DNA from: Acholeplasmatales bacterium
GTDB taxonomy: Bacteria; Bacillota_I; Bacilli_A; Izemoplasmatales; Izemoplasmataceae
Direction of reading: 5' to 3'
Assembly (NCBI GenBank): GCA_007694145.1
Contig: RECF01000062.1
Coordinates: 1 to 64,000 of the forward strand
Length of the DNA stretch: 64,000 bases
Numbering within the stretch: position 1 is the stretch's first letter; every line of letters begins with the position of its first letter. This document shows positions 39,005 to 44,564 of this stretch, piece after piece. Below the pieces are notes generated by a model, which worked only from the letters and a program-made list of their open reading frames with translations, was not told where the DNA came from and ran no database searches. The position numbers and the translations under genes were made by a program.

Positions 39005-39120
39005 GGCAAAAACTCTCACTTACTGTCAAAGACTCAGGTGCCTAAGGGCTTAATAACCTGCCGAGACGAAAGACCTATGATTTCATAGACCTCTTTTGTC
39101 GTCAGACAGGAGAGGTTTTT
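39005..39120 (+). promoter_or_regulatory. L10-type leader with attenuator
   Basis: The 155-base gap before rplJ has the CAGGTGCCTAAGGGCTTAA block closed by ACCTG (39035-39060) characteristic of the L10(L12)4-binding leader of Bacillota, and just downstream a terminator-like hairpin: ACCTCT / AGAGGT (39089-39094, 39111-39116) with inner TGTC/GACA, followed by TTTT. An alternative CTATGA/TCATAG hairpin (39075-39088) sits immediately upstream. Together they fit autogenous attenuation of rplJ-rplL. Confidence 0.75.
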
Positions 39121-39148
39121 CATCGCTCACTGTAGGAGGTGTAAAAGC

Positions 39149-39667: not shown

Positions 39668-40036
39668 ATGGCTAAATTAACCAATGAAGAAATCATCAAG
39701 GCGTTAGAAGAAAAAACGTTGCTTGAACTGAAAGAACTTGTCGACATGATGAAAGAAACATTCGGTGTCGATCCTTCAGCTGTCGCTGTCGCCGCACCGG
39801 GTGCCGCTGCCGAAGATACCGGCCCAACTTCTGTCAATGTCGTCATCACCGATGTCGGCGCGAAAAAGATCGGCGTACTGAAAGTCGTGCGTGAACTGAC
39901 AGGTCTTGGCCTCAAGGAAGCCAAAGAACTCGTTGACAACATCCCTGCCGTTGTCAAGGAAAACATGGATCCCGAAGATGCGAAACCTATCAAAGAACAA
40001 CTTGAAGAAGCCGGCGCAACCGTCGAACTCAAATAA
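39668..40036 (+). CDS. rplL: 50S ribosomal protein L7/L12
   Basis: Flexible stalk protein that recruits translational GTPases. 122 residues: N-terminal dimerisation helices, an Ala/Pro/Gly-rich hinge (AVAAPGAAAED), and the C-terminal domain with KIGVLKVVRELTGLGLKEAK. AAGGAGG precedes the ATG. Confidence 0.98.
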   Translation: MAKLTNEEIIKALEEKTLLELKELVDMMKETFGVDPSAVAVAAPGAAAEDTGPTSVNVVITDVGAKKIGVLKVVRELTGLGLKEAKELVDNIPAVVKENMDPEDAKPIKEQLEEAGATVELK

Positions 40037-40056
40037 ACGGACAACACGAGCTGAAG

Positions 40057-40081
40057 ACCTGAGTGCAAACTCAGGTTTTTG
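40057..40081 (+). terminator. Hairpin terminator/attenuator after rplL
   Basis: ACCTGAGT / ACTCAGGT 8-bp perfect stem, GCAA tetraloop, then five T. It may set the ratio between rplJL and downstream transcription. Confidence 0.8.
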
Positions 40082-40113: not shown

Positions 40114-40701
40114 ATGTCGCATTACTATGATGCCGATCAAGACAACGTGAAAAGTGCACCACGCCGCATCAGTTTCGAGCTTGAGGGGCAGCACTACACA
40201 CTCATGACGGACCACGGCGTCTTTTCCCACGGTCATGTGGATGAGGCAACGCGCCTGTTGATTGAAACCGTCCGGCTTGATGCCGGACAAAAAGCACTGG
40301 ACCTTGGTTGTGGTTACGGTGTCATCGGCATCGTCCTCGCCAAGCGCGACCAGGCTCAGGTCACTTTGACCGATGTCAACACCCGGGCCCTCATGTTGGC
40401 TGATGAAAATGCCAAGGCCAACCACGTGTCTGTCCACTGCATCGCAAGCGATGGCTTCACCGAAATCGATAATCAGTTTGACGCCATCATCACCAATCCG
40501 CCCATCCGCATCGGGAAAACAGAACTCTAAGCGCTTAACGACGCGGCAATCGAACATCTAAAACCACAGGCAAGCCTAAGGCTGGTGCTTCATAAAAAAC
40601 ATGGGGCGCTGTCGACCTTGCAACACTTAGCAACGAAAACCCGCACAACCCTTGTGCGACGGCATAAAGGCTTCCATGTCCTACGATGCGATAAAGATTG
40701 A
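40114..40701 (+). pseudogene. RsmC-like 16S rRNA methyltransferase (YbxB) broken by an in-frame TAA
   Basis: Class I SAM methyltransferase in the position of ybxB between rplL and rpoB. The open part (138 residues) has GVFSHGHVDEATRLL, the SAM loop DLGCGYG and the catalytic NPPIRIGKTEL, then TAA at 40528-40530. The same frame continues for 56 more sense codons (ALNDAAIEHLKP..., LVLHKKHGAL, RRHKGFHVLR) with the family's C-terminal look before TGA at 40699-40701; a Tyr codon at the stop would restore a typical 195-residue protein. So a single nonsense change (or sequencing error) separates it from an intact gene. AAGGAGGT precedes ATG 40114. Confidence 0.85.
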
Positions 40702-40726
40702 CTATTTGACAAGACTGTGATAAAAT
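40698..40726 (+). promoter_or_regulatory. Promoter of rpoB-rpoC
   Basis: TTGACT, 17-base spacer, extended -10 TGATAAAAT; the -35 overlaps the final codon of the rsmC-like frame. A weaker TACAAT at 40739-40744 could be a second start. The 70-base leader holds no clear structure. Confidence 0.7.
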
Positions 40727-40796
40727 ATCAAAATGCGATACAATGCGCTTTTTTGTGTTGTCGTCATTTTTCGACTAAAAAACGGGGTGTATACGA

Positions 40797-43700
40797 GTGA
40801 ACTATAAGATTGTACAATACGGTAAAAAACGTGTGCGAAGAAACTATTCCCGCGTCAAGTCCAACATTGAACTGCCTAATCTCATTCAGGTCCAAACTGA
40901 TTCATTCAAATGGTTTGTCGAACATGGACTCGGCGAGTTATTTGAAGATATTTCCCCTATTGAAAGTTTTACTCAGGACCTGCAGCTTTACTTTGAGAAG
41001 TTCGAGTTTGACGACCCCAAATATGACCTGCGTACATCGAAAGACAAAGATTTGACCTACGCCCGGCCGTTACGGGTTTTTGTAAAACTTGTGAACAATG
41101 CGACCGGCGAGATCAAAGAACAAAAAATCTTCATGGGAGACTTCCCCTTCATGACCCCGACGGGGTCGTTTGTCATCAACGGATCCGAACGTGTCATCGT
41201 TTCACAAATTGTCCGGAGCGCCGGGGTTTTCTTTTCCGAAGAAATCGACAAAAAGACCTTGCGACGCAAGTACCTTGGCCAGGTCATTCCTAACCGTGGT
41301 GCCTGGCTTGAATATGAGATTGGAACGAAAGACATTCTTTTCGTCAAGTTGGACCGATCGAAAAAAATCCCGATGACCACGCTTTTGCGTGCCCTCGGTT
41401 TTTCAAGTAACGATGAAATGATTAAACTCTACGGTGAGCAGCCGCTTTTCGTTGGGACACTCGAAAAGGATCTGACCAAGAACTCAAATGAAGCCATTCT
41501 TGAGGTCTATTCGAAGCTCCGCCAGGGCGAAACCGCCACCATCGAAGGTGCGATGACGTTTTTCACGAGTCGATTGTTTGATTCCAAACGGTACGAACTC
41601 GCCGAAGTTGGCCGTTACAAGGTCAACAAGAAACTCGACGTGCTCAACCATGTCATCGGCAAATCACTCGCCCGCGATTTCATCGACCCGAAAACCGGTG
41701 AAGTGCTCGTCAAAAAAGATGTGCGCATCAACCGCAAATTACGCGATATTCTCCATGCCAACCGCCACCTGTTCACCCAAGTGGTTCCCGGCGTGTTACG
41801 GAGTGGCCTTGACTATGATTTCGCAGACCAACTCGAGATCCTTGATGCCAACCCGGCCCTTGATTTCCTGACTCGCGAAGAAAAGCTCCATCACATTCGT
41901 CACCAAAGCTACTTGACGGCCGAAGGGTACGTCAAAGCTATGTTCAAGGCGACAATCACCAACAAAAAACAGTATGTTGAAACGCATGGCCAAGAAGCGT
42001 ACCGCAACATGATTACATCGCTTGAAGAAACACTGGCCAATGAAAAACTATACCTAGAATTAGCGAAAGTCCAGATTCTCGAGGTTAATCACCTGACCCG
42101 TGAAGATGAAGAGGTCGTCGTGCGTATCATCGGGAACGATCCCACCGAAGACAAAGAACACATTGTGCCCTCAGACATCATCGCCAGTATCGCGTATTAC
42201 CTCAATCTGTTTTCCAGCTACGGTCGACTCGACGATATCGACCATCTTGGCAACCGCCGCTTGCGCCTGATTGGCGAACTGCTTAAAAACCAGTTCCGAA
42301 TCGGTTTGTCAAAACTCGAGAAAAACGTCAAGGACCGCATGAGTACCCAAAGCATGACCCAAGAAGTGACCCCGCAAAACCTGATCAACATCCGTCCGCT
42401 GACGTCCTCACTCAAAGAGTTTTTTGGTTCGAGTCAGTTGTCGCAGTTCATGTCGCAAACCAATCCGCTCGATGAACTGACCCACAAACGTCGTCTATCG
42501 GCTCTTGGTCCAGGTGGGTTGACCCGTGATCGGGCCGGCTTTGAAGTCCGTGACGTCCATTACTCCCACTATGGCCGTATTTGCCCGATTGAAACGCCTG
42601 AAGGACAAAACATCGGCCTTATCAGCAGCTTGGCATCGTATGTCCGTGTCAACAAATACGGGTTCATTGAAACACCGTATTTGCGTGTTGAGTCGGAAGA
42701 GTTGCCGGATGATGACGTAAAACTGACTGTCACCGATGAGATGCTCTACTTGACGGCCGATGAAGAAGAACAATACACAATCGGTCAGGCTAACATCGAA
42801 CTGAGCGATGACAAAGTGATTCTCAACGACAATGTCGTTGCCCGTCACATGGGTGAAACGAAAATGTTCCCACGCGAAACCATCGAACTCATCGACGTTT
42901 CTCCTAAACAGATCGTTTCCATCTCAACAGCCTGTATCCCCTTCCTTGAGCACGATGACGCCAACCGTGCGCTCATGGGTGCCAACATGCAACGCCAGGC
43001 TATTCCGTTACTTAGACCGGAAGCCCCCTTTGTCGGAACGGGTATCGAATACAAGGCGGCCCAAGATTCGGGTTCCTGCTTGCTTGCGGAAAACGATGGA
43101 ATCGTGCAGTATGTCGATGCGAAAACCATTCGCATCAAAAACGATACCGGTAAGACCGATATATACAGACTGCGCAAGTTTGAGCGCAGCAACCAAGGCA
43201 CCTGCGTCAACGAAGTGCCCATTGTCGAAGTTGGCGAATCCGTCAAAAAAGGTGACATCATTACCGATGGTCCCTCGATGGACGAAGGCGAACTCGCGCT
43301 TGGCCGCAATGTTACCGTCGCGTTCATGACGTGGAACGGTTACAACTACGAAGATGCCATCATCCTCAGCGAACGGCTGGTCAAGGAAGATGTCTATACC
43401 TCCATCCACATTGAAAAATATGAGGCCGAAGCCCGGGAAACCAAGCTCGGTAAGGAAGAAATCACCCGCGAGATTCCCAACGTCGGTGAGGAAGGCCGTC
43501 GCTATCTCGATGAGCGTGGCGTCATCATCCCCGGATCCGAAGTTGAAGAAGGCGACATCCTCGTCGGCAAAATCACCCCGAAAGGCCATACCGATCCGAC
43601 CCCCGAAGACAAGTTGCTCCTGGCAATTTTTGGTGAGAAGTCCCGCGAAGTGCGCGACACGTCCCTCCGTGTACCACATGGTGGGGGCGGCATCGTGCAA

Positions 43701-44564
43701 AGCGTCAAGTATTTCTCCCGTGCGAACGACGACGAGCTACCGCCTGGGGCCAATGAAATCGTGCAGGTATTCATCGTCCAGAAACGGAAAATTTCCGAAG
43801 GGGACAAGATGGCCGGCCGTCACGGAAACAAAGGCGTTATCTCGAAAATCCTACCGGTTGAAGACATGCCGTATTTACCTGATGGAACCCCTGTTGACAT
43901 CATGCTCAACCCACTGGGCGTACCTTCACGCATGAACATCGGTCAAGTACTTGAAATCCACCTTGGCCTCGCCGCGAAGAAACTGGGCGTTCATATCGCG
44001 ACCCCCGTCTTTGACGGTGTGTCCAATGACGATTTAGTGGCTATCATGAAAGAGGCGAACTTGCAAGCGAACGGCAAAACCCTCCTTTACTCGGGTCGAA
44101 CCGGTGAAGCATATGACAACGAAGTGTCTGTCGGCGTCATGCACATGATCAAACTCGACCACATGGTCGACGACAAACTGCATGCTAGAAGTGTTGGCCC
44201 CTACACCCTCGTCACCCAGCAACCCATGGGCGGGAAAGCACAAAACGGCGGTCAGCGTTTCGGTGAAATGGAAGTTTGGGCCCTTGAAGCTTACGGCGCC
44301 GCGTACTGCTTGCAGGAGATGTTGACCGTCAAAAGTGACGACATCATCGGTCGCAATAAGGTTTTCCGTGCCATCGTCGACGGCAAGAGCATTCCCGGCC
44401 CGAGCCTTCCGGAGTCCTTCCGCGTCCTCACACGCGAATTGCAGTCCTTAGGCATTTACGTCGAGCTAATCAACCGTGAAACCAAGCGGAATGAAGCAAA
44501 CAAGAGCCTCGTGGAAGATTCGGATGTCGAGGACTACTTGGACAAATACGGGTTCAACTCCTAA
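40797..44564 (+). CDS. rpoB: RNA polymerase beta subunit
   Basis: Catalytic subunit forming the pincer, fork loop and rifampicin pocket. 1255 residues. The rifampicin region reads [39 protein letters not shown] in register with the sensitive form (pieces: [22 protein letters not shown]), [16 protein letters not shown] follows, and [11 protein letters not shown] carries the conserved catalytic-site lysines. GTG start with GGGGTG seven bases upstream. Fifteen bases before rpoC. Confidence 0.98.

What the first reader, a model, noticed from the sequence alone, without database searches (positions are those of the whole stretch)
40114..40701. RsmC-like gene interrupted by one in-frame TAA right after its catalytic motif
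Seen: sense codons in the same frame on both sides of TAA 40528-40530, with family-like C-terminal sequence after it. A Tyr codon (TAC/TAT) one base away would restore the protein. No indel is needed. Known: this methyltransferase (YbxB) is conserved between rplL and rpoB. Inference: recent loss, a strain polymorphism, a sequence error, or stop read-through.
Basis: partly seen in the sequence, partly recalled or inferred. Interest (0 to 1): 0.5.

Follow-up and report, generated by a model that had tools for sequence, protein, structure and literature searches.

The report
Recently broken ribosomal RNA methyltransferase gene
An uncultured bacterium, probably of the Izemoplasma group, carries a housekeeping ribosomal RNA methylation gene cut short by a stop codon; it looks like an ordinary, recent gene loss, and the gene most likely marked a different ribosomal RNA position from the one first assumed.

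Summary
The 195-codon frame at 40114-40701, between rplL and rpoB, has one in-frame TAA at 40528-40530 and no indel against the same-genus genome. Of 90 genomes of the order, 74 have the gene; only this one has a stop in it. The site is Tyr in 27 and Phe in 2 of 29 aligned relatives. Within 17 codons after the stop the frame also departs at three conserved positions that the same-genus gene keeps, so a lone base-calling error is not the best reading. The stop falls inside a helix and removes the last three strands of the fold. Best explanation: a recent pseudogene, perhaps polymorphic; reads would be needed to exclude error. rpoB is probably unaffected: its conserved promoter overlaps the gene's normal stop codon. 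'RsmC, m2G1207' needs correction: the intact same-genus gene misses the NCBIfam RsmC cut-off, and 9 of 9 16S copies from 7 relatives carry C1207 and G1051, so the likely target is G1051, the site a 2025 preprint shows for the related SasO (PMC12637814). Ordinary, low interest.

The parts
40114..40701 (+). ybxB/SasO-like (RsmC-type) rRNA methyltransferase gene, interrupted: pseudogene
   Evidence: Translation; PF05175 137.9 bits over residues 28-190; intact in the same-genus genome at 71% identity with no gap; ribosome-binding-like GGAAGGAGG before ATG read directly
40528..40530 (+). in-frame TAA, codon 139
   Evidence: aligned column is Tyr in 27 and Phe in 2 of 29 relatives
40114..40527 (+). 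part before the stop, 138 codons: AdoMet-binding half with DLGCGYG and NPPIR motifs, family-like
   Evidence: 0 of 55 class-constrained columns violated; PF05175 120.9 bits
40531..40698 (+). part after the stop, 56 codons: corresponds to the rest of the fold (last strands); carries three unusual residues
   Evidence: structure model of intact relative L039
40053..40080 (+). hairpin with T run between rplL and the gene, probable attenuator
   Evidence: Fold -18.4 kcal/mol, z -4.69; conserved in 4 of 4 genomes aligned; not flagged by the terminator scan
40698..40726 (+). probable rpoB promoter: TTGACT, 17 bases, TAAAAT with TG before it; first hexamer contains the gene's normal stop codon
   Evidence: Scan match 10 of 12; conserved in 4 of 4 genomes aligned
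39008..39130 (+). L10 leader of the rplJL transcript
   Evidence: Rfam RF00557, 56 bits, cut-off 44
39668..40036 (+). rplL, upstream neighbour
   Evidence: ORF; 98% identical to the same-genus copy
40797..44564 (+). rpoB, downstream neighbour, intact
   Evidence: ORF; 95% identical to the same-genus copy over 1255 residues, no stop

Best explanation
A recent pseudogene (fixed or still polymorphic). In this lineage the single-domain 16S rRNA guanine-N2 methyltransferase gene between rplL and rpoB acquired a nonsense codon at residue 139. Translation should end there, giving a 138-residue fragment with the AdoMet-binding half and the NPPIR motif, but without part of the following helix and the last three strands of the sheet; such a fragment should not fold into an active enzyme (inference from the model of an intact relative). 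No second copy was found in the assembled genome, so the m2G mark that this enzyme makes, most likely on G1051 of 16S helix 34, is predicted to be absent. The loss is tolerated because the mark is not essential and because rpoB has its own promoter, whose first hexamer overlaps the dead gene's normal stop codon. Shown: the stop, the intact relatives, the extra departures, the promoter-like sequence and its conservation, the base pair in relatives. Inferred: no active protein, no mark in this organism, promoter activity and no effect on rpoB, recent date.
For: Stop present. 74 of 90 order genomes have the gene at E <= 1e-15; 72 of the 74 are near full length without a stop, one (G020) is split over two contigs, and only the window has a stop. 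Site aromatic in 29 of 29 relatives. After the stop the window has N where 29 of 29 have F/L/Y, A where 29 of 29 have G, R where 29 of 29 have W/Y/V/I; strict class violations after the stop 2 of 18 in the window against 2 of 466 in 29 relatives, Fisher P 0.0075, and 0 of 55 before it; the first 20 columns after the stop fit the family worst of 30 sequences (0.70, next 0.59 and 0.54). The same-genus gene has family-type residues at those three positions. Loss of fold: model of an intact relative, mean pLDDT 93.5; the stop falls within helix 134-145, and E148-159, H164-172, E176-183, E186-192 lie after it; best PDB match 1dus. The protein search finds one match in the own genome, this one. Dispensability: 7 of 7 genomes of one family of the order have no match at 1e-15; of the Mollicutes analysed in PMC4014445 only Acholeplasma laidlawii has RsmC (passage). 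Recent: no indel in 195 codons, and gene-wide divergence like that of intact pairs.
Against: The assembly is a draft (94 contigs, 92.58% complete) and reads were not available, so an error, a minority allele, or a second copy in the missing part is not excluded. The three extra departures are few; intact relatives, mostly distant ones, can have as many or more unusual residues after this column (milder threshold: window 4, others up to 6; stricter threshold: window 3, others up to 5). No gene-wide loss of constraint: the pairwise position 1+2 to position 3 ratio, 0.30, lies below that of the 17 intact pairs (0.31-0.64), and the codon model rejects omega 1 on this branch on both sides of the stop and even puts it below background (the branch length ran to its bound, so that estimate is unreliable). 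These fit a recent loss but also an intact gene with an error.
Confidence: 0.78

Rival explanations
1. Sequence or assembly error: the organism has an intact gene and the consensus base is wrong.
For: Draft assembly with 94 contigs; one codon decides; no indel; gene-wide divergence looks constrained.
Against: Three further unusual residues at conserved positions lie within 17 codons after the stop, while 0 of 55 class-constrained columns before it are broken; the other seven genes of the 10.9-kb stretch aligned with the same-genus genome show no stop or gap (7 of 7, rpoC over 968 of 1236 residues).
Confidence: 0.15
2. Strain polymorphism: the nonsense allele coexists with an intact allele in the population, and the assembly took the nonsense one. 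This is a sub-case of the best explanation and its probability is contained in that one.
For: A recent loss would pass through this state.
Against: Nothing here tests it; I had one genome of this species and no reads.
Confidence: 0.2
3. Functional stop read-through or reassigned TAA: the full protein is still made.
For: The frame after the stop is still recognisable.
Against: Conserved positions after the stop are broken; no TAA inside the seven neighbouring genes, while rplA, rplJ and rpoB, which align end to end with the same-genus copies, end with TAA; 73 of 73 other genomes of the order with a match have no stop in it.
Confidence: 0.03
4. Split gene: the part after the stop is translated separately and both halves assemble.
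For: None found.
Against: In frame after the stop there is no ATG, and the first GTG or TTG leaves 38 codons (read directly); the 56-codon tail alone has no Pfam match.
Confidence: 0.01

Closest known systems
SasO-like / YbxB-type single-domain 16S rRNA (guanine-N2) methyltransferase
   Same: Single domain of about 195 residues next to rpoB; relatives' 16S has the G1051-C1207 pair that the preprint associates with this type (PMC12637814 section 9)
   Different: Here the frame is interrupted and the product should be inactive; the target was not tested in this organism. The preprint measured SasO from Streptomyces; for Firmicutes it argues from gene distribution and from drug sensitivity of an S. 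aureus knockout
MJ0882 (PDB 1dus)
   Same: Best sequence and structure match of intact relatives: E 2.5e-33 for the same-genus protein, TM 0.90 over 196 columns for the L039 model
   Different: Archaeal, intact, and its in vivo target was not looked up here
E. coli RsmC (PDB 2pjd), m2G1207
   Same: Same catalytic domain family; second structure match, TM 0.77 by query length
   Different: Chain of 334-343 residues against 195; NCBIfam cut-off of 295 bits not met by this gene (88.0) or its intact relative (83.8); base 1207 is C, not G, in relatives' 16S
Reductive loss of RsmC in Mollicutes
   Same: Same type of gene lost in related lineages (PMC4014445, one passage)
   Different: There the gene is reported absent; here the gene body is still in place

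Membership tests
RsmC equivalog (NCBIfam NF007023) | score at or above the curated cut-off of 295 bits | tested here: not met
   88.0 bits (frame with X), 83.8 bits (intact same-genus copy)
RsmC equivalog (NCBIfam NF007023) | target G1207 present in 16S rRNA | tested here: inconclusive
   Not met in relatives: C at 1207 in 9 of 9 copies from 7 relatives; the window's own genome has no assembled 16S
SasO-like / YbxB-type methyltransferase | methyltransferase small domain PF05175 | tested here: met
   137.9 bits, cut-off 23
   rplL before and rpoB after in the window, G001, G035 and G007; rpoB follows the gene in 30 of 30 loci, window included; rplL was not checked in the other loci
SasO-like / YbxB-type methyltransferase | G1051 as substrate base | tested here: inconclusive
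   G at 1051 in 9 of 9 copies from 7 relatives, none available for the window's genome
SasO-like / YbxB-type methyltransferase | uninterrupted frame | tested here: not met
   TAA at codon 139
SasO-like / YbxB-type methyltransferase | N2-methylation activity | not testable with these tools
   needs RNA or protein
pseudogene | disabling change with intact orthologues elsewhere | tested here: met
pseudogene | relaxed constraint | tested here: inconclusive
   local excess of unusual residues after the stop but no gene-wide signal
pseudogene | change confirmed by reads | not testable with these tools
   no reads held

The most novel reading that the evidence does not exclude
An environmental Izemoplasma-type bacterium has recently and naturally switched off helix-34 guanine methylation (G1051) while keeping the unmethylated target base, which would make its ribosomes sensitive to saskemycin-type inhibitors; the same base pair is kept in the one gene-less relative whose 16S was read (G037). 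The still bolder reading, that TAA is read through and the enzyme persists, is given about 3%.
Probability: 0.45. Interest if true: 0.3.

Novelty: new member of a known kind. Interest (0 to 1): 0.15.

Why it matters
Mostly it does not go beyond one more gene-loss event. It gives a natural case in which the loss of a widely kept rRNA methylation can be studied, it suggests that rpoB is insulated from the loss by a promoter that begins inside the dead gene's end, and it moves the expected modification site for this group from 1207 to 1051, which changes what a bench test should look for.

Tried and rejected
A gene-wide test of relaxed selection by a branch codon model ran into saturation: the branch length of the window's gene hit its upper bound, so its low omega (about 0.02, below background) is not trusted. 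Pairwise controls showed that the strong divergence of this gene against the start of rpoB (4.4-fold) is normal for the gene (1.7 to 5.8-fold in 17 intact same-genus pairs, which share members and are not independent), so divergence alone was rejected as evidence of decay.

My first alignment was wrong because 12 loci lay on the minus strand; it was redone, and one search is not used. The 16S of the window's own genome was sought and not found; of 19 relatives searched for 16S, 7 gave one. The first scan of genome contigs with the single protein confirmed nothing; the profile scan gave named relatives.

Other interrupted genes in the window: I looked at frames of 48 codons or more in 14 stretches poorly covered by the long ORFs (only the first 70 residues of each were printed) and saw no second interrupted gene; recognition was by recall and this is not a full annotation.

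Papers: listings from six searches. Seen as passages: PMC4014445, PMC12637814, PMC10868615, PMC7056703, PMC8046335; read as a section: PMC12637814 section 9. A search for papers with both RsmC and ybxB gave none. No claim is made that this gene's loss in this group is absent from print.

Full report
What is there. The frame that starts at ATG 40114 reads 138 codons, meets TAA at 40528-40530, continues for 56 sense codons and ends with TGA at 40699-40701. Both sides belong to one methyltransferase domain: PF05175 covers residues 28-190 with 137.9 bits against a cut-off of 23 when the stop is read as X, and 120.9 bits for the part before the stop alone; the 56-codon tail alone gives no Pfam match. 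The gene lies between rplL (39668-40036) and rpoB (40797-44564). The window is part of contig C90 of a 1.86-Mb genome in 94 contigs, 92.58% complete.

Where it comes from. So the window is most likely from an uncultured Izemoplasma-type member of the Bacilli (inference).

Relatives. Among 90 genomes of the order, 74 have a match at E <= 1e-15. In 72 the match is near full length without a stop; in G020 the gene is split over two contigs; the window is the only one with a stop inside. Sixteen have no match: all 7 genomes of one family (f2, genus g18), and 9 others of 68-89% estimated completeness, which I did not follow up. For the f2 genomes, rpoB was found in 6 of 7. From the frame ends printed, none of the six shows an rplL or methyltransferase frame just before rpoB; in four a frame that I recognise by recall as rpsI stands there.

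The stop column. In an alignment with 29 of the 60 relatives (the best-scoring ones, for which loci were returned), the stop column is Tyr in 27 and Phe in 2. The same-genus gene aligns over all 195 codons without a gap at 71% identity.

Is the stop the only change? No. Within 17 codons after the stop, the window has Asn where 29 of 29 relatives have Phe, Leu or Tyr; Ala where 29 of 29 have Gly; and Arg where 29 of 29 have Trp, Tyr, Val or Ile. In columns where all other sequences share one residue class, the window breaks 2 of 18 after the stop and 0 of 55 before it; the 29 relatives together break 2 of 466 and 7 of 1602; Fisher P 0.0075 after the stop (related sequences are not independent). 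Gly to Ala is not counted in that strict test, because a class of small residues was allowed; it is the one departure in 6 invariant columns after the stop. Over the first 20 columns after the stop the window fits the family worst of 30 sequences (deficit 0.70; next 0.59 and 0.54). Results against: counted over the whole part after the stop, some intact relatives have as many or more unusual residues (milder threshold: window 4, others up to 6; stricter: window 3, others up to 5).

How recent. Gene-wide there is no sign of long decay. The same-genus pair has a ratio of position 1+2 to position 3 differences of 0.30, against 0.31-0.64 in 17 intact same-genus pairs, and no indel. A branch codon model rejects omega of 1 on the window's branch on both sides of the stop and puts it below background, but the branch length hit its bound and the estimate is unreliable. 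The gene was therefore probably constrained for most of the time since the two species split, and the loss, if real, is young.

What the stop does. The model of an intact named relative (L039, alignment of 25 sequences, mean pLDDT 93.5) has helix 134-145 followed by strand 148-159, helix 164-172 and strands 176-183 and 186-192. The AdoMet-binding half and NPPIR remain; the last three strands and the helix between them are lost. I infer no active enzyme. The closest solved structures are 1dus (TM 0.90) and E. coli RsmC 2pjd (TM 0.77 by query length). The protein search finds one match in the window's own genome, this gene; the other nine PF05175 matches there are other members of the wide domain family and were not assigned.

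Why it can be tolerated. A promoter-like TTGACT-17-TAAAAT with a TG before the second hexamer lies at 40698-40726 (10 of 12 matches; 3 such sites were found where shuffles gave a mean of 1.5, so the scan alone is weak). It is conserved in 4 of 4 genomes aligned, and its first hexamer contains the gene's normal stop codon. A hairpin with a T run stands between rplL and the gene, conserved in the same four. rpoB is therefore probably not dependent on translation of this gene (inference). In E. coli the rsmC knockout lowered reporter yield at most twofold (PMC7056703, passages), and among the Mollicutes analysed in PMC4014445 only A. laidlawii has RsmC (passage).

What the enzyme would have done. 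Neither the window's frame (88.0 bits) nor the intact same-genus gene (83.8 bits) reaches the RsmC cut-off of 295 bits. Aligned to an E. coli 16S for numbering, 9 of 9 copies from 7 relatives (4 of the same family, 3 others of the order; 7 of 19 genomes searched gave a 16S) have G at 1051 and C at 1207. A preprint reports that SasO methylates N2 of G1051, that Firmicutes with this flipped pair frequently carry SasO-like genes, and that inactivating the S. aureus orthologue raised saskemycin sensitivity 32-fold (PMC12637814, section 9). So the lost mark is most likely m2G1051. The window's own 16S is not assembled, so this is inferred from relatives.

Verdict. An in-frame nonsense codon in a housekeeping rRNA methyltransferase gene, best read as a recent pseudogene, with sequence error and polymorphism not excluded without reads. 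Ordinary; the useful additions are the extra departures, the promoter overlap and the corrected modification site.

Noticed in passing
40698-40726: The probable rpoB promoter's first hexamer contains the stop codon of the upstream methyltransferase frame in 4 of 4 genomes aligned, so the end of that gene may be kept for two reasons.
   Followed up: yes
40740-40761: The conserved start of the rpoB leader can pair with itself (ACAATGCG with TGTGTTGT, six-base loop); the window's difference from its relatives keeps a G-U pair. Read by eye, not folded.
   Followed up: no
40053-40080: Hairpin with T run between rplL and the methyltransferase gene, conserved in four genomes, probable attenuator.
   Followed up: partly
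39008-39130: L10 leader (RF00557), 56 bits, the only Rfam match of the window at gathering score.
   Followed up: no
L131-L136: In family f2 of the order, 7 of 7 genomes lack a match to this methyltransferase at 1e-15, and in the 6 with rpoB found no rplL frame was seen just before rpoB; in four an rpsI-like frame (by recall) precedes it.
   Followed up: partly
L124: The f2 genome G037 lacks a match to the gene yet keeps G1051-C1207 in its 16S.
   Followed up: no
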